Source: Cyanobium sp. ATX 6A2
GTDB lineage: Bacteria > Cyanobacteriota > Cyanobacteriia > PCC-6307 > Cyanobiaceae
Direction of reading: 5' to 3'
Assembly (NCBI RefSeq): GCF_024346355.1
Contig: NZ_JAGQCU010000004.1
Coordinates: 1 to 64,000 of the forward strand
Length of the DNA stretch: 64,000 bases
Under the pieces are notes generated by a model. That model was not told the origin of the DNA. It did not search any database and saw only the letters and a program-made list of their open reading frames with translations. Numbering within the stretch: position 1 is the first letter of the stretch; each line of letters starts with the position of its first letter. A program made the translations under genes and the position numbers. This document shows, piece by piece, positions 24,719 to 31,263 of the stretch.

Positions 24719-25938
24719 ACCAGGGCCTGATCCTGCACCACACCTGCCCCGCCCGGCTGTTCGGCGGTCAGGACGTGCGGCCGCCAGGCAGCATTGGTGG
24801 AGGCAGCGGCGGAACTTCAGGCGTGGCAGAGAGCGGGGCGACGCCGGAGCGTGGGGGGCCGGAGCGTGGGGAGGCCGAGCGGGTGGATGTGGAGCTCTTC
24901 CTGGCCCGCCAGGGTCCGCTGCTCGATGTGCGCAGCCCGGCCGAGTTCGCCCAGGGCCACATCCCCGGCGCGATCAACCTGCCCCTGTTCGACGACGCCG
25001 GCCGGGCCGAGGTGGGCACCGCTTACAAGCTTGAGGGCCGCCAGACGGCGGTGCTGCGCGGCCTGGCCCTGGTGGGGCCGCGCCTGGAGGCGATGGCCGC
25101 CGAGCTGGCCGAGCGGGCCGCCGCCAGCCCCGGCCAGCCCCTGCGGCTGCTCTGCTGGCGTGGCGGCATGCGCAGTGCCAGCCTCGCCTGGCTGGCCGGC
25201 CAGCTGGATCTGCCGGTGCTGCTGCTGGAGGGGGGCTACAAGGCCTACCGGCGCTGGGTGCTGGCCCTGTTCGAGCGGCCCTGGCCCCTGCGCCTGCTGG
25301 GCGGCCGCACCGGCACCGGCAAAACCGACCTGCTGCTCGCCCTGGCGGCCCGGGGTGTGGCGGTGGTGGACCTCGAGGGCCTGGCCCACCACCGCGGCAG
25401 CAGCTTCGGGGCCCTGGGCATGCCCCCCCAGCCCAGCAGCGAGCACTACGAGAACCGCCTGGCCATGGCCCTGCGTGGCCTGGCGGGGGCGGAGCAGATC
25501 TGGTTGGAGGCCGAGAGCGTGCAGGTGGGCCGCTGCCGCATCCCGGCCGGCCTCTGGCGGCAGATGCAGGCGGCGCCGGCCCTGGCGGTGCAGCGGCCCC
25601 TGGAGCAGCGCCTGGCCCAGCTGGTGCGCATCTACGGCGTGCAGGATCCCGAGCAGCTGGCCGAGGCCACCCGGCGCATCGCCCGCCGCCTCGGGCCCCA
25701 GCGCACCGCCCTGGCCCTCGAGGCGATCGCCGCCCGCGACTGGACCGCCGCCTGCCGCCAGATGCTCGACTACTACGACCGCTGCTACGACCACGACCTC
25801 AGCGCCCACACCCGTGCGCCGGTGGAGCTGGGCGAGCGCGGCGCCGAGGCGGCGGCCGCGCTGCTGCTGGAGCGGGGGCTGGTGAGCACCGCCGCGGCAC
25901 TCAGCCCGCCAGCAGGCGGCGGCGCAGGCGGTCGCTGA
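24703..25938 (+). CDS. selU: tRNA 2-selenouridine synthase
   Basis: SelU (MnmH) replaces the sulfur of 2-thiouridine at the tRNA wobble position with selenium from selenophosphate. An N-terminal rhodanese domain (LLDVRSPAEFAQGHIPGAIN, about 73-92) carries the active-site loop LLCWRGGMRS. A P-loop domain follows (GGRTGTGKTDLL). The frame opens at GTG 24703 (411 residues), but the first 60 residues look non-conserved. GTG at 24775 or 24883 is a more likely start and would avoid overlap with the divergent hydrolase gene. Its 3' end overlaps the selenate-type ABC permease gene on the opposite strand. selD is not in the window. Confidence 0.93.
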   Translation: MRQRANQGLILHHTCPARLFGGQDVRPPGSIGGGSGGTSGVAESGATPERGGPERGEAERVDVELFLARQGPLLDVRSPAEFAQGHIPGAINLPLFDDAGRAEVGTAYKLEGRQTAVLRGLALVGPRLEAMAAELAERAAASPGQPLRLLCWRGGMRSASLAWLAGQLDLPVLLLEGGYKAYRRWVLALFERPWPLRLLGGRTGTGKTDLLLALAARGVAVVDLEGLAHHRGSSFGALGMPPQPSSEHYENRLAMALRGLAGAEQIWLEAESVQVGRCRIPAGLWRQMQAAPALAVQRPLEQRLAQLVRIYGVQDPEQLAEATRRIARRLGPQRTALALEAIAARDWTAACRQMLDYYDRCYDHDLSAHTRAPVELGERGAEAAAALLLERGLVSTAAALSPPAGGGAGGR

Positions 25939-27535
25939 GGTCCTCCCCCAGCAGCGTCAGGGCGGCGTACACCAGCATCAGCGCCGCCAGTTCGTCGACG
26001 GCGAAGGAACTGAGGGCCTCCAGCAGCTGGCTGCCCAGGCCCGTGGCTCCCACCAGGCCCACCACCACCGATTCGCGCAGGATCACATCGGCCCGGTAGG
26101 CGCCGTAGGCCAGGTAGGGCCGCGCCAGGGCGCTGAAGCGCCCGTAGAGCAGCGCCAGCCGTGGGCCGCTGCCGGCGCTCAGCAGGGCCTGCTCGCTGCT
26201 CTCGCCGCGGTGCTCGGCACTCTCCAGCAGCAGCCGGCCCAGCACCCCCAGGTTGTGGAGGCCCAGGGCCAGGGCGCCGGTGATCACCCCGGGCTGCAGC
26301 ACGAACAACAGCAGCAGGGCGATCAGCGGCGGTGGCCACAGCCGTCCCAGGGCCCAGAGCCCCAGCACCGCCGCCCGGCCCAGGGGCCAGGGCCGCACCA
26401 GCAGCAGCAGCAGCGGCGCCAGGCCCACCGCCAGGGCCGCGGCCAGCAGGGTGAGGCTGAGGGTGTTGGCCACCAGGGTGGGCCAGGGCAGGGCCGCCAC
26501 CGCCCCCCAGTCGGCGGGGGGCAGGGGGGGCAGGGGTTGCCAGCGCAGCAGGCTGCGCGGGTCCACCTCCAGGCCCCAGGCCAGCGCCACCAGCACGGGC
26601 AGCAGCAGGGCCGCGGCCAGCACCAGTTCCCGGCCGCCGCGGCCCACGCCGCTGGCGTTGCCGTTGACCGCGGCGTGTCTGTGGGGCGAGGCGGCCTGGG
26701 GGCTGAGGCTGAGGCGAGCCGGCATCGTCCAGCGCCGCCGCAGCCAGCCCACCAGCTGCTCCAGCAGCAGCATCGCCGCCAGCAGCAGCCAGAGGCCGGT
26801 CCAGAGCTCCCTGAAAGCCAGCGACTGCAGCGTCAGCCGCAGCTCGGTGCCCAGCCCCCCCAGGCCGAACACCCCCAGCAGGGTGGCGCTGCGCAGGGCG
26901 CATTCCAGCCGGTAGCCGCCGTAGCTCAGCAGCTGGGGCAGCAGCGGCGGGCCCAGGGCGGTGAGCAGGGCGGCCGGGGGCGTCACGCCGGCCGCCTCCA
27001 GGGCCTCCAGGCCAGCGCTGGGCAGGGCGTCGAGCTGGTCGCTCAGCACCCGTGCCACCAGGGCGCCGAAGGGGATGGCGATCGCCAGCACCGCCACCGC
27101 CGGCTGCAGGCCCACCAGTTGCAGCAGGATCAGGCCCCAGAGCAGCTCGTGGATCGAGCGCGGCAGCGCCAGCAACCGCCGGATCAGCTCCGCTGGCCAC
27201 AGCCGGCCGCTGCAGCGGCGCCACACCTGCCGCGAGCTCAGCACCCCCAGCACCAGCCCCAGCACCAGGCTCAGGGCCCAGCCCAGCAGGGCCATGCCCA
27301 CGGTCACGCCCAGGCCCCGCAGGGCCGAGCTGAGCACCAGTGGATCCAGCGAGGGCCGCAGCGCCGCCAGTGCGAACTGCCCCACCAGGCTCCAGCCGCC
27401 GCCGTGGCTGAGGCCCGGCAGCAGCACCAGCAGGGGCAGCAGCACCAGGGCCGGCAGCAGCACCCACAGGGGCGCCGCCGGCCGCCAGCGGTGCCACCGG
27501 CATCCGCCGGCCAGCGCCGGACCCGCCGTGCTCAT
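25901..27535 (-). CDS. Fused PhnE-like ABC transporter permease, putative selenium oxyanion uptake
   Basis: This 544-residue inner-membrane protein contains two PhnE/PtxC-type permease modules in one chain, about 60-275 and 300-540, each with five or so hydrophobic helices and the permease EAA-like loop (EALEAAGV in the first; EQALLSAG in the second). Single-module PhnE is about half this length, so this is a fusion or duplication. Its ATG overlaps the stop of the ATPase gene (ATGA). Together with the binding protein at 30307-31263 it should form one transporter. Its position beside selU points to selenate or selenite, but phosphonate or phosphite cannot be excluded. Confidence 0.85.
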   Translation of the reverse strand: MSTAGPALAGGCRWHRWRPAAPLWVLLPALVLLPLLVLLPGLSHGGGWSLVGQFALAALRPSLDPLVLSSALRGLGVTVGMALLGWALSLVLGLVLGVLSSRQVWRRCSGRLWPAELIRRLLALPRSIHELLWGLILLQLVGLQPAVAVLAIAIPFGALVARVLSDQLDALPSAGLEALEAAGVTPPAALLTALGPPLLPQLLSYGGYRLECALRSATLLGVFGLGGLGTELRLTLQSLAFRELWTGLWLLLAAMLLLEQLVGWLRRRWTMPARLSLSPQAASPHRHAAVNGNASGVGRGGRELVLAAALLLPVLVALAWGLEVDPRSLLRWQPLPPLPPADWGAVAALPWPTLVANTLSLTLLAAALAVGLAPLLLLLVRPWPLGRAAVLGLWALGRLWPPPLIALLLLFVLQPGVITGALALGLHNLGVLGRLLLESAEHRGESSEQALLSAGSGPRLALLYGRFSALARPYLAYGAYRADVILRESVVVGLVGATGLGSQLLEALSSFAVDELAALMLVYAALTLLGEDLSDRLRRRLLAG

Positions 27536-28275
27536 GGCGCCTCGCCGGCGTAGAGCGCCGCCAGCAGGCCGGGGTTCACCGCCCCCACCGGCAGGTCGAA
27601 CTGCACCCGCCCGGCCCGCAGACCCACCACCCGATCGAAACCCGCCAGCAGGTCGGGTCGGTGCAGGCTGAGCAGCAGGGCCCTGGGCGCGCGGCCCTCC
27701 GCCAGCAGCAGCGCCAGCAGCTCGCCGGCCAGGCGCGGATCGAGGCTGGCCAGGGGCTCATCGGCGAGCAGCAGCATCGGCTCCTGGCGCAGCAGCCGCC
27801 CCAGGGCCACCCGCTGCCGCTGGCCGCCCGAGAGGGCCGACACGGGCTGATCGAGCAGGGCCGGATCCAGATCCAGCCGCCGCAGGGTGGCGGCGCAGGG
27901 CTCGCTCTCCAGCGGCAGCAGCAGGTTGAGCAGGGCCCGTGGCCAGCCCCACTGCCCCAGCCGCCCGGCATTGAGGTTCTGCTGCACGCTCAGCTCCTCG
28001 ATCAGGCGCAGGTCCTGCCAGAGGGTGCCGATGCGGCGCTGCTGGCGGCGGCGCAGCCGCTGCGATCGCGCCACCGGCTCTCCCTGCCAGTGGACGCTGC
28101 CCTTGTCGGGGGGCAGCAGGCCGTTGGCGACGGCCAGCAGCGTGCTCTTGCCGGCACCGCTCGGACCCAGCAGGGCAACGATCTCGCCGGTGTCCAGTCG
28201 CAGGGACACCCCGTCCAGACGGGGCCGCTGGCGGCCGCCGACAGTGACGGACTGAAGCTCGAGCGCCGGTGGCAT
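27532..28275 (-). CDS. PhnC-like ABC transporter ATP-binding protein
   Basis: This 247-residue ATPase has Walker A GPSGAGKSTLL (about 37-47), signature LSGGQRQRVALGR, Walker B LLLADEPLASLD and an H-loop-type SLHRPD. The pattern fits the PhnC/PtxA group that energises phosphonate, phosphite or selenate importers. It precedes the fused permease in the same direction with an ATGA overlap, so the two are co-expressed. The matching periplasmic binding protein is about 2 kb away, on the same strand. Confidence 0.9.
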   Translation of the reverse strand: MPPALELQSVTVGGRQRPRLDGVSLRLDTGEIVALLGPSGAGKSTLLAVANGLLPPDKGSVHWQGEPVARSQRLRRRQQRRIGTLWQDLRLIEELSVQQNLNAGRLGQWGWPRALLNLLLPLESEPCAATLRRLDLDPALLDQPVSALSGGQRQRVALGRLLRQEPMLLLADEPLASLDPRLAGELLALLLAEGRAPRALLLSLHRPDLLAGFDRVVGLRAGRVQFDLPVGAVNPGLLAALYAGEAP

Positions 28276-28350: not shown

Positions 28351-28593
28351 TCAGCCCCCGCTGGCGGCGTGCTGCTTCAGCAGCAGCTCCAGGCGCTCCT
28401 GCAAGTCAACGCGCTGGGCAGGATCTCCCACCAGGGTCACCGCGCCGGTTTCCGGCCACCAGTTGAGCCGCAGGTTGCTGACGCCGTCGTGGAACACCGC
28501 CATCTGGAAGGCTCCCTTGTGGATCCATTCACAGGGAATGTCCAGGCTGCCGACCAACTCCTGGAGTTGCTCGACGGTTCCGTGAAAGATCAC
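28351..28593 (-). CDS. Small conserved hypothetical protein
   Basis: This 80-residue soluble protein begins MIFHGTVEQLQELVGSLDI and ends in a helix with LLLKQHAASGG. The middle is a beta-rich stretch (GVSNLRLNWWPETGAVTLVG). It looks like a folded small alpha/beta domain rather than a chance ORF. No family is recognised. It lies between the transporter ATPase and the divergent urea transporter gene, which starts 30 bases away. Confidence 0.6.
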   Translation of the reverse strand: MIFHGTVEQLQELVGSLDIPCEWIHKGAFQMAVFHDGVSNLRLNWWPETGAVTLVGDPAQRVDLQERLELLLKQHAASGG

Positions 28594-28622
28594 AGCCCTG
28601 GCAGATCCGCAGTTCTCTCATA

Positions 28623-30293
28623 ATGACAGGAATCGGATGCCCATCACCGTCGTTGACACGGACCAACGCCGGCGAGGCCAGCGCCTACACCCTGCTCGCC
28701 AGCCTTCTGCCCGAGCCTGGGCCCTCCCGCAGCCGACTGCAGCGCTGGTTGCCCACCAGCGGCACCCTTCACACCGTCACCGATCCCTGGCTTTCCGGTT
28801 CCCCGCTCCTCGCCGCCGTGCTGGTTGGAGCGCGGGCCTTCGGCCAGGTGATCCTGATCAACAACCCCCTCAGCGGAGCCCTGTTGCTGCTGGCTCTTGT
28901 GCTGCAGTCCGGCTGGCTGGGCCTGTTCGCCATCCTGGGCCTCGCCGGTGCCCAGGGTCTGGCGATGGCGCTCGACTGGGATCCGTCCACGCGGCTTCAG
29001 GGCATCCACGGCTTCAATGGAGTGCTGGTGGGCTGCGCGGCCGCCACCTTCGCCGATCTCCGTGGGCCAGCTCTGGTTGGCTGGCTGCTGGCGGTGCCGC
29101 TGGCCGGTGCCGCCAGCGCCGCCCTGTTGGAGAGCCTGAGGCGGGGGTGGTTCTGCCTGCCCTCCCTGCCTCCCCTCACCCTGCCGTTCTGCCTGCTCAG
29201 CTGGCTGCTGCTCGGCCTCGGCCTGGGTCTTGAGCCCGCCGGCCTGGCTCTGGCCTCCCCGCCGCCGCCGGCTGCTGTGCCGGCGACCCTGCCGGGACTT
29301 CTGGAGGGGATCGTGCACGGTTTCGGCCAGGTGTTCCTGTGCCCGGGCCTGCCCAGCGGGTTGCTGGTGGTGGCTGCGGTCGCCATCGCCAGCCCCCTGG
29401 CCGCCCTGCTCGGGGCGGCCGGGGGACTGGCGGCTGCCCTGGCCGCCCTCCTGCTGCAGGCTCCCTGGTCGGAGGTCGTCAACGGGCTGGCCAGCTACAA
29501 CGGCGTGCTGGTGGCGATCGCCATCGGCGGTATCTTCTATGCCCCCAGCCGCCTCAGCCTGCCGATCGCCCTGGCCGGGGCCGCCGGCAGCGTTCCTCTG
29601 GCACGGCTGCTCCAGGTTCCCCTGAACAGCCTGGGCTTGCCCCTGCTGACCAGTCCCTTCGTGCTGGCCACCTGGCTGGCGCTGTTGCTGGTGCGCCAGA
29701 ACCTGCCGGCGCTGCTGCCGGTGGCCGTGCATGCCATCCTCACCCCGGAGGAGCACCGTCGCCGCTACCGCGTTGCCTTGCGCATGCTCGGCGAGTTCCA
29801 CCGGCGGCTGGGCACCTCCACGCCGGCATCCCTCACCCCGGATCTGGCCGCCACAGCCCCACCCGAGGATCTGGAGCGGATCGGCCAGCTGTTCCGGCGG
29901 CTCGATCGCGACGGCAACGGCTGGCTGTCGATCGAGGAGCTGCGGGCGGGCCTGGCCGCTGCCGGTGATGGGGGCCATCAGCAGGCTTCAGAGCTTCTGA
30001 ACCGGATCGCCCGCGGCATGGATCGCAATGGCGACGGCCGGCTGGATCGGGAGGAAGTGGTGGAACTGGTGCTGCGGCTGCAGCGGTTGCGGCAGGGCCG
30101 TGAGCGCCTGCTCACCTACCTGCTGCCCTCGGATGCCGATGGCGATGGACGGCTCGATCGGGCTGAACTGGCCCGGTTGCTGCGCGGCATCGGCCTGGCT
30201 CCCCTCCAGGCGTACGAGGAGCAGGTGTTGTTCGGCCCCCAGGGCAGTGCCCTGACCTGGGGGGAGTTTGTGGATCGGCTGCTGCTCAGCTGA
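28623..30293 (+). CDS. Urea transporter family protein fused to EF-hand domain
   Basis: The first 375 or so residues form a UT/SLC14-type urea channel: about ten hydrophobic helices in two repeated halves, each with a pore-type segment (INNPLSGALLLLALV and GFNGVLVGCAAATF in one half; VNGLASYNGVLVAIAIGG in the other). The cytoplasmic C-terminus carries three canonical EF-hand loops starting at about D428 (DRDGNGWLSIEE), D467 (DRNGDGRLDREE) and D504 (DADGDGRLDRAE), with a degenerate fourth (GPQGSALTWGEF). Calcium control of urea permeation is inferred. No urease gene is in the window. It interrupts the selenium-type ABC cluster. The ATG at 28624 or the GTG/ATG next to 28623 gives the same frame. 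Confidence 0.88.
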   Translation: MTGIGCPSPSLTRTNAGEASAYTLLASLLPEPGPSRSRLQRWLPTSGTLHTVTDPWLSGSPLLAAVLVGARAFGQVILINNPLSGALLLLALVLQSGWLGLFAILGLAGAQGLAMALDWDPSTRLQGIHGFNGVLVGCAAATFADLRGPALVGWLLAVPLAGAASAALLESLRRGWFCLPSLPPLTLPFCLLSWLLLGLGLGLEPAGLALASPPPPAAVPATLPGLLEGIVHGFGQVFLCPGLPSGLLVVAAVAIASPLAALLGAAGGLAAALAALLLQAPWSEVVNGLASYNGVLVAIAIGGIFYAPSRLSLPIALAGAAGSVPLARLLQVPLNSLGLPLLTSPFVLATWLALLLVRQNLPALLPVAVHAILTPEEHRRRYRVALRMLGEFHRRLGTSTPASLTPDLAATAPPEDLERIGQLFRRLDRDGNGWLSIEELRAGLAAAGDGGHQQASELLNRIARGMDRNGDGRLDREEVVELVLRLQRLRQGRERLLTYLLPSDADGDGRLDRAELARLLRGIGLAPLQAYEEQVLFGPQGSALTWGEFVDRLLLS

Positions 30294-30306: not shown

Positions 30307-31263
30307 TCAGCGGATCTTGCCGATCTGGCGGCCCACCGCCTCGATGGCCTCGTACTGGCTGTTGCTCGCCGGCACGAAGGTTTCGGCTCCGAACAGCTCC
30401 AGGATCTGCGCCTGGCGGGGGTCGTCGGGGCTGAGGTTGGTGAAGGCCTGCTCCAGCCGCTCGGTGAAGCCCTGGCCGTAGTCCTCGTCCAGGCCGGGCT
30501 GCACCACCCAGGTGTAGTTGGCGTAGCCGGGCGTGCGCCAGATCGCCAACACCTTGTCGGTGTCCACCTTGCCCTCCCGGAGCCGGCTGAGCCACACCTC
30601 CTCGTTCACCACCCCGGCGTCGTAGGTGCCGCTCTGCACCAGGGCGATCAGGGCGTCGTGGCTGCCGCTGAAGCCCGGGTTGCCGCCGGCGAAGTCGCTC
30701 AGCTCCACGCCCGCCTGGTTGAGGTAGTACTGGGGCATCAGGCGGCCGGAGGTGGAACTCTCCGAGCCGAAGGTGAAGCGCTTGCCCTTGAGCTGCTGCA
30801 GGTCGCCGGGATCGCTGAACGGCTTCAGGCCGCTGCTGGGATTGGCGATGAACACGCTGTGGAAGGAGCGGTCGATGTCGCGCTGGGCGAGGGCGCGAGC
30901 GCCGGGTTTCTGCAGCCAGGCCTGCACGCCGGTGAGGCCGCCGAACCACACCAGGTCGAGGTCGCCGGTGCGGAAGGCCGTCACGGCCGCGGTGTAGTCG
31001 GTGACGGGCACGAAGCGCACCGGCACCTTCAGCTGCTCGCTCAGCTCATCGGCCACCAGGCCGTAGAGGCGGTTGAGTTTCTCGGGGTTCTGGTCGGGGA
31101 TGGCACCGATGCGCAGCACCCGCTTCTCGTTCGGACGGGCGGCTTCGCTGGTGGCGCCATCAGCACCGGCGTTGGTGTCGGTGCGGGGGGAACAGGCCGT
31201 TGGCAGCAGGCCGATCAGCAGCAGGCCGGCGAGCGCAACGGCCCAGCGTTCTCGGTTGGTCAA
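30307..31263 (-). CDS. PhnD-like lipoprotein, putative selenate-binding ABC component
   Basis: This 318-residue protein has a lipoprotein signal (LLLIGLLPTACSP, Cys about 24) and a type II periplasmic binding fold: LRIGAIPDQNPEKLNRLY, the FRTGDLDLVWFGG block, and GSHDALIALVQSGTYDAGVVNEEVW, read as separate conserved blocks. It belongs to the phosphate/phosphite/phosphonate-binding superfamily. One clade of this superfamily is annotated as putative selenate-binding (TIGR04553). The nearby selU gene supports that assignment. It is separated from its presumed ATPase and permease (25901-28275) by two genes. Confidence 0.82.
   Translation of the reverse strand: MTNRERWAVALAGLLLIGLLPTACSPRTDTNAGADGATSEAARPNEKRVLRIGAIPDQNPEKLNRLYGLVADELSEQLKVPVRFVPVTDYTAAVTAFRTGDLDLVWFGGLTGVQAWLQKPGARALAQRDIDRSFHSVFIANPSSGLKPFSDPGDLQQLKGKRFTFGSESSTSGRLMPQYYLNQAGVELSDFAGGNPGFSGSHDALIALVQSGTYDAGVVNEEVWLSRLREGKVDTDKVLAIWRTPGYANYTWVVQPGLDEDYGQGFTERLEQAFTNLSPDDPRQAQILELFGAETFVPASNSQYEAIEAVGRQIGKIR

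What the first reader, a model, noticed from the sequence alone, without database searches (positions are those of the whole stretch)
28623..30293. Urea channel fused to a three EF-hand calcium sensor
A UT/SLC14-type channel of about 375 residues continues in frame into three textbook EF-hand loops with Asp at the first positions (about 428, 467, 504). Urea channels are not normally tied to calmodulin-like domains. This suggests a channel gated or regulated by intracellular calcium, possibly linking nitrogen supply to calcium signals in a cyanobacterium.
Basis: partly seen in the sequence, partly recalled or inferred. Interest (0 to 1): 0.7.

Follow-up and report, generated by a model that had tools for sequence, protein, structure and literature searches.

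The report
Urea channel with calcium-sensor tail
Some cyanobacteria make a urea channel that carries its own calcium-binding tail, and in many relatives its gene sits directly behind a gene for a urea-making enzyme that also carries a calcium-binding domain, which suggests, but does not prove, that calcium controls how these cells make and release urea.

Summary
The 556-aa ORF at 28623-30293 is a UT/SLC14 channel (Pfam UT, E 3e-64) followed in frame by three canonical EF-hand loops (428, 467, 504) and a degenerate fourth. It is no chance or assembly join: 38 of 48 cyanobacterial loci found have the same two-domain protein in one frame (the other ten are cut, broken or fragments), and the first Asp and last Glu of all three loops are invariant in 39 of 39 sequences. 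A model (pLDDT 87, pTM 0.87) shows a UT fold plus a calmodulin-like domain.

New: in 16 of 48 loci an arginase gene lies directly upstream on the same strand; 13 of the 16 show an EF-hand domain of their own. Two relatives have the window's exact gene order with the arginase present, so the window probably lost it. In one filamentous clade the neighbours are instead a nucleoside hydrolase and an EF-hand 5'-nucleotidase, and two urea-contacting pore threonines are replaced.

Best reading: a Ca2+-responsive urea channel, ancestrally paired with a Ca2+-binding arginase, releasing or equilibrating urea. Ca2+ binding, gating and flux direction are inferred. No paper on either fusion was seen in the searches.

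The parts
28623..30293 (+). UT-EF gene: urea channel fused to a calmodulin-like EF-hand domain, 556 aa
28830..29690 (+). UT (PF03253) channel domain; the pore threonines map to T186 (29178-29180) and T343 (29649-29651)
   Evidence: the UT-B residues are named in PMC4357013 (passages)
29745..29816 (+). Long helix after the last membrane span (residues 375-398), proposed coupling helix between channel and EF domain
   Evidence: model; basic stretch 358-400, mean 7.5 R+K against 3.3 D+E over 39 sequences; coupling role inferred
29904..29939 (+). EF loop 1, residues 428-439
30021..30056 (+). EF loop 2, residues 467-478
30132..30167 (+). EF loop 3, residues 504-515
30210..30287 (+). Degenerate fourth helix-loop-helix, residues 530-555, loop without acidic ligands
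   Evidence: model; sequence
28594..28622 (.). 29-bp gap where relatives L037 and L050 hold the arginase gene
28351..28593 (-). Small conserved ORF (80 aa, no Pfam match)
27532..28275 (-). ABC transporter ATPase of a phosphonate-type importer (PhnC-like by context)
   Evidence: ABC_tran
25901..27535 (-). ABC transporter permease of the same set (PhnE-like by context)
   Evidence: BPD_transp_1, 27.1 bits against a cut-off of 26.4
30307..31263 (-). Phosphonate-type binding protein (PhnD-like)
   Evidence: PF12974, E 5.1e-66

Best explanation
A cyanobacterial SLC14-type urea channel fused to a cytoplasmic calmodulin-like domain with three metal-competent EF hands. Ancestrally it formed a gene pair with an EF-hand arginase, so that the enzyme making urea from arginine and the channel passing it would both respond to intracellular Ca2+. 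When Ca2+ rises, the EF domain folds onto the long helix after the last membrane span and changes pore opening; the passive pore lets arginase-made urea leave or equilibrate. In the window's genome the arginase partner is absent and the channel stands alone. Shown: fusion, ligand and pore-residue conservation, predicted fold, gene pairing in relatives, absence of the arginase at this locus. Inferred: Ca2+ binding, gating, direction of flux, and that the arginase was lost here and not gained elsewhere.
For: UT and EF models and structure model with Foldseek matches to solved UTs and then calmodulin-like domains. EF ligands invariant 39/39. Pore Gln and Thr positions kept in the window copy. Arginase directly upstream, same strand, in 16 of 48 cyanobacterial loci, 13 of the 16 with an EF-domain match; 11 aligned ones all keep Asp-1 and Glu-12 of three loops and the six His/Asp metal positions. 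7 of 13 measured pairs overlap or lie within 9 nt, with ATGA overlaps in L049 and L059. In 386 phylum genomes 8 of 9 with this arginase have UT-EF, 7 adjacent, UT-EF being in 12 (Fisher p 4e-13 ignoring kinship). Same gene order as the window plus arginase in L037 and L050. UrtA and urease lie elsewhere in the genome.
Against: No Ca2+ binding, flux or expression data. The window copy has no arginase beside it and its genome has no strong match to that arginase (best E 2.8e-13); 32 of 48 loci show no arginase domain at E under 1e-20 (pieces in L039 and L058), and relatives L075 and L125 have the channel at other places in the neighbourhood, also without arginase. Some arginase neighbours have no EF domain (L049; none found in L084). 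The family is patchy and often broken. No NtcA-type site upstream (0 of 38). Start codons used for the gaps were picked by script.
Confidence: 0.5

Rival explanations
1. Calcium-modulated urea uptake: the channel is a low-affinity entry route beside UrtABCDE that feeds urease, opened or closed by Ca2+ signals tied to nitrogen status.
For: The window genome has urease and keeps the channel without an arginase partner. UT channels are passive and work both ways (recalled).
Against: A high-affinity importer gene is present; the recurrent neighbour in relatives makes urea.
Confidence: 0.25
2. The EF domain is structural: it binds Ca2+ constitutively for folding, trimer assembly or membrane localisation and does not gate the pore.
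For: Nothing here shows a Ca2+-dependent switch; EF3 departs from the canonical pattern at position 6 in 29 of 39.
Against: Three ligand sets kept invariant at the first and last positions in all 39 sequences across two deep clades, and EF domains recur on unrelated neighbours, an arginase and a 5'-nucleotidase, which suits shared regulation better than separate structural needs.
Confidence: 0.15
3. In part of the family the pore no longer passes urea mainly but another small solute of nucleoside or nucleotide breakdown, so 'urea channel' is the wrong name there.
For: 12 of 12 channels beside nucleoside hydrolase or EF-nucleotidase have Gly at 186 and Ala or Ser at 343; 14 of 14 beside arginase have Thr at 186, 13 of them Thr at 343. 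In Moorena SIO3I8 the hydrolase-side copy (L082) is Gly/Ala and the broken arginase-side copy (L077) has Thr at 186.
Against: On the tree this is a single change (1 independent pair among 28 rows). The window copy keeps both threonines. G276 has a Gly-type channel with no nucleoside hydrolase match in the 13 kb read, and an EF-arginase on another contig. L056 and L071 are of the Gly kind with neither partner seen.
Confidence: 0.1

Closest known systems
SLC14/UT urea channels (dvUT 3k3g, bovine UT-B 4ezc, human UT-A and UT-B)
   Same: Pfam UT over its cut-off; same fold (3k3g, TM 0.84 on the target); conserved Gln pair and, in the window copy, the Thr pair of the filter.
   Different: The solved UTs matched end where the EF domain begins; below the cut-off of the bacterial Yut model TIGR03441.
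Cyanobacterial NOX5 (csNOX5)
   Same: A calmodulin-like EF domain fused to a membrane protein and switching it with Ca2+ (PMC7317449, passages).
   Different: An oxidase, not a channel; no sequence relation tested.
CSE, Ca2+ sensor EF-hand protein of filamentous cyanobacteria
   Same: Cyanobacterial EF-hand protein linked to nitrogen metabolism (PMC7065334, passages).
   Different: A small free-standing two-EF-hand protein, not fused to a transporter or enzyme.
ATP-Mg/Pi carrier and calcium-dependent protein kinases
   Same: EF-hand regulatory domain on a transporter or enzyme; their EF domains are among the Foldseek matches (4zcu E 3.4e-3, 3khe E 3.7e-4).
   Different: Eukaryotic, unrelated transporter and kinase folds.
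Cyanobacterial UT-M23 fusions (G065, G074, G213)
   Same: UT channel with a fused C-terminal domain.
   Different: Peptidase M23 domain in place of EF hands; 22-28% identity over aligned channel stretches.

Membership tests
UT / SLC14 urea channel | Pfam UT model over its curated cut-off | tested here: met
   217.3 bits against 25, residues 70-356
UT / SLC14 urea channel | Fold of solved UTs | tested here: met
   Foldseek ranks 1-19 are UT structures, E 2.5e-16 to 9.8e-14
UT / SLC14 urea channel | Filter residues (Leu/Thr pairs of the Sm site) | tested here: met
   L135, T186, L296, T343 in the window copy; residue list from PMC4357013 passages. Not met in 13 filamentous relatives of the alignment, Gly at 186
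UT / SLC14 urea channel | Urea conduction | not testable with these tools
   needs flux assay
Bacterial Yut equivalog (TIGR03441) | Score over the curated cut-off | tested here: not met
   142.9 bits against 274.6; so not filed as Yut
EF-hand / calmodulin-like domain | Loops with ligand residues at 1, 3, 5 and 12, in paired helix-loop-helix units | tested here: met
EF-hand / calmodulin-like domain | Ca2+ binding with conformational change | not testable with these tools
   needs purified protein
Arginase (partner gene in relatives) | Pfam arginase family and the metal-site His/Asp residues | tested here: met
   P0002 E 2.5e-48 and P0005 E 1.3e-48; six positions 11 of 11 (roles recalled)
Arginase (partner gene in relatives) | TIGR01229 rocF equivalog cut-off | tested here: not met
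   200.2 and 210.5 bits against 227.6; agmatinase model 51 and 68 bits. Works like an arginase by motif; not filed as the equivalog

The most novel reading that the evidence does not exclude
Cyanobacteria have a calcium-tagged urea module: an EF-hand arginase and an EF-hand urea channel encoded as a pair, so that one intracellular Ca2+ signal sets both urea production and urea release. A sister branch re-tuned the channel's filter and swapped the partner for an EF-hand 5'-nucleotidase and a nucleoside hydrolase, giving a family of calcium-gated small-solute channels matched to nitrogen-salvage enzymes.
Probability: 0.4. Interest if true: 0.82.

Novelty: new variant of a known kind. Interest (0 to 1): 0.68.

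Why it matters
Ca2+ is held to signal nitrogen and carbon status in cyanobacteria, but few effectors are known: PMC7065334 calls CSE the only known Ca2+ sensor in Anabaena (passage). A channel and a neighbouring enzyme that each carry a calmodulin-like domain would be direct effectors. That would make the question of what bacterial Ca2+ signals do testable with two purified proteins, and would provide a built-in ligand-controlled version of the kidney urea channel family.

Tried and rejected
Assembly or frame artefact: rejected, same fusion in one frame in 38 other records. Chance EF-like loops: rejected by conservation. Fusion limited to picocyanobacteria: rejected, filamentous and pleurocapsalean genomes have it. 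NtcA control: GTA-N8-TAC (motif recalled) found within 300 bp upstream in 0 of 38 loci, shuffled mean 1.9; none in the window either. Arginase remnant in the window: none; outside the EF domain of UT-EF only hits of E 0.30 or worse. Viral spread: one scan of viral contigs, which finds close relatives only, gave none. Several independent filter/neighbour switches: rejected, one change only. The second structure model (EF-arginase, 11 sequences) was mediocre (pLDDT 73, pTM 0.72) and nothing rests on it.

Rows dropped: A2 holds the window and the 38 of 52 loci with one ORF of at least 530 aa reaching past query residue 500, so its EF conservation is measured on proteins chosen to have that region. 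Left out: L070 (in-frame stop), L071, L072 and L080 (contig ends), L073, L075, L077, L084, L085 and L086 (broken or fragments) and the non-cyanobacterial L078, L079, L081 and L083. The patterns came from the channel part only, so the search itself did not favour EF hands. In one search (257 of 386 genomes with some match; not all rows are listed) I counted only E 1e-100 or better, 9 genomes: six cover the EF part, G267 part of it, G017 only the catalytic part, and in G428 the EF part is separate and holds a stop.

Literature: searches (10 of 10) showed no paper on a UT-EF or arginase-EF fusion. I saw titles and starts of abstracts only, and not all hits were listed (20 of 176; 10 of 27). Only open-licence PMC papers are held, so this is weak evidence of absence. 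Papers opened, passages only: PMC7065334, PMC10117731, PMC4357013, PMC7317449, PMC11316352, PMC9948718.

Full report
WHAT IS THERE. The ORF at 28623-30293 (+) encodes 556 residues: a UT channel domain at 70-356 (Pfam UT, E 3.2e-64) and three EF hands at 428, 467 and 504. The bacterial 'yut' equivalog model is matched below its cut-off (142.9 against 274.6 bits), so it is a UT-family channel but not a filed Yut. It is the only UT match in a 3.0-Mb, 46-contig genome. AlphaFold2 on 39 sequences gave mean pLDDT 87.1 and pTM 0.87: a UT fold, one long helix (375-398), then two helix-loop-helix pairs, the last without acidic ligands. Foldseek ranks UT structures 1-19 (3k3g, TM 0.84 on the target) and then EF-hand domains (3khe, E 3.7e-4).

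IT IS A FAMILY. A search with channel-only patterns in the species-genome collection returned 52 loci. 48 are cyanobacterial: 47 by title and L076 by sequence (it is titled Bifidobacterium breve but sits among cyanobacteria in the tree). In 38 of the 48 one frame covers channel and EF domain. The other ten are cut by contig ends (L071, L072, L080), stopped (L070) or broken or fragmentary (L073, L075, L077, L084, L085, L086). None of the 48 is an intact channel without the EF domain. Of the four non-cyanobacterial hits, three were run through Pfam: L078 and L081 channel only, L083 channel plus SIR2; L079 is 283 aa long, too short for a tail. In a draw of 386 genomes of the phylum 14 had a UT over the cut-off: 12 UT-EF and 2 fused to peptidase M23. 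So this is a patchy family within the phylum.

EF CONSERVATION. Asp-1 and Glu-12 of all three loops are invariant in 39 of 39. The commonest residue averages 0.54 over the EF domain outside the ligand positions and 0.60 over the channel. EF3 is atypical at position 6 in 29 of 39.

THE PARTNER. In 16 of 48 cyanobacterial loci an arginase catalytic domain lies directly upstream on the same strand (E under 1e-20); L039 and L058 keep pieces of one. Of the 16, 13 show an EF-domain match (L041's cut by the contig start); L049 and L084 showed none, and L064's contig starts inside the gene. Eleven were aligned: all have Asp-1 and Glu-12 of three loops, six His/Asp positions of the arginase metal site, and Asn and His of the SGN-H loop, with Ser in 10 of 11 (roles recalled). 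Arginase scores exceed agmatinase scores (200 and 211 against 51 and 68 bits) but stay below the rocF cut-off of 227.6. Of 13 gene pairs measured, 7 overlap or are within 9 nt, with ATGA overlaps in L049 and L059; the other six are 99-304 nt apart (starts picked by script). In the 386-genome draw, 8 of 9 genomes with this arginase (E 1e-100 or better) have UT-EF, 7 adjacent, while UT-EF occurs in 12; Fisher p 3.9e-13, ignoring kinship.

THE WINDOW COPY. L037 and L050 have the window's order, phnE-phnC-small ORF-[arginase]-UT-EF-phnD-aminotransferase-uracil glycosylase-ispG-ctpA. Pfam supports five flanking genes; the last three names and the phn letters are recalled. In the window 29 bp lie where the arginase would be, with no remnant. 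The own genome has only weak matches to the arginase query (3, best E 2.8e-13). Other relatives without arginase have the channel elsewhere in this neighbourhood: L075 between phnD and the aminotransferase, L125 after the aminotransferase. Losses seem recurrent: L043, L045, L046 and L073 have a FUR-family gene and then UT-EF, where L049 and L042 have FUR-arginase-UT-EF, and L039 keeps a shortened arginase. Arginase pairs occur in both main clades of the tree, so I read the window as having lost its copy; gains elsewhere are not formally excluded. Urease and UrtA are on contig C42.

A SECOND PARTNER AND A CHANGED PORE. In filamentous relatives 11 loci have a nucleoside hydrolase and 7 a 5'-nucleotidase nearby; no locus has either together with the arginase. 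All 7 nucleotidases carry the EF tail; Pfam was run on one (three EF-hand stretches). The filter threonines of UT-B (T172, T334; PMC4357013 passages) map to T186 and T343. They are Thr at 186 in 14 of 14 arginase-side channels (13 with Thr at 343; L049 has Ala), Gly plus Ala/Ser in 12 of 12 of the second kind, and mixed in the 13 others, window Thr/Thr. Moorena SIO3I8 holds both kinds: an intact Gly/Ala copy beside hydrolase and nucleotidase (L082) and a broken Thr-186 copy beside a broken arginase (L077). The tree makes this one switch, so it suggests but does not prove functional matching.

MECHANISM. Shown: fusion, conserved ligands, predicted fold, pairing. Inferred: the tail is cytoplasmic (UT termini recalled to be so; the stretch 358-400 is basic, mean 7.5 R+K against 3.3 D+E); Ca2+ makes the EF lobes act on the linker helix and shift pore opening; urea flows passively out when arginase runs. 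csNOX5 is a cyanobacterial precedent for a calmodulin-like domain switching a membrane protein with Ca2+ (PMC7317449, passages).

AGAINST. No binding, flux or expression data; a patchy family that often decays; no nitrogen-regulator site found; the window copy lacks the partner and sits on a long branch (0.81); some arginase neighbours have no EF domain.

NOVELTY. The parts are known kinds. The combination and the paired EF-enzyme genes were not seen in the ten paper searches listed under Tried and rejected, which cover only part of the literature.

Noticed in passing
L053, L057, L061, L066, L068, L069, L082 (e.g. L068 2600-4297): 5'-nucleotidase fused at its C-terminus to three EF hands, near UT-EF and usually a nucleoside hydrolase; itself an unusual fusion.
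   Followed up: partly
L125 3882-7284 (G035): UT-EF relative of the window, 57-63% identical, broken between about residues 249 and 282 by a stretch with two reverse-strand ORFs that look like a transposase (name by eye).
   Followed up: no
L040 4563-5780, L044 4548-5699, L055 4510-5727: Alanine dehydrogenase gene upstream of UT-EF on the same strand in three records (Pfam on L040; others by tblastn).
   Followed up: partly
L010 (G074), L011 (G065), L026 (G213): A second kind of cyanobacterial UT fusion, with a peptidase M23 domain, 717-754 aa frames.
   Followed up: partly
L083 5926-7842: Smithella UT fused to a SIR2 domain.
   Followed up: no
L076: Record titled Bifidobacterium breve MAG carries a cyanobacterial EF-arginase/UT-EF pair: mislabelled or contaminated contig.
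   Followed up: no
L077 (Moorena SIO3I8): Second, broken arginase/UT-EF pair in a genome that also has the intact hydrolase-side copy L082; about 1.6 kb separates the channel part from the end of the EF domain.
   Followed up: partly
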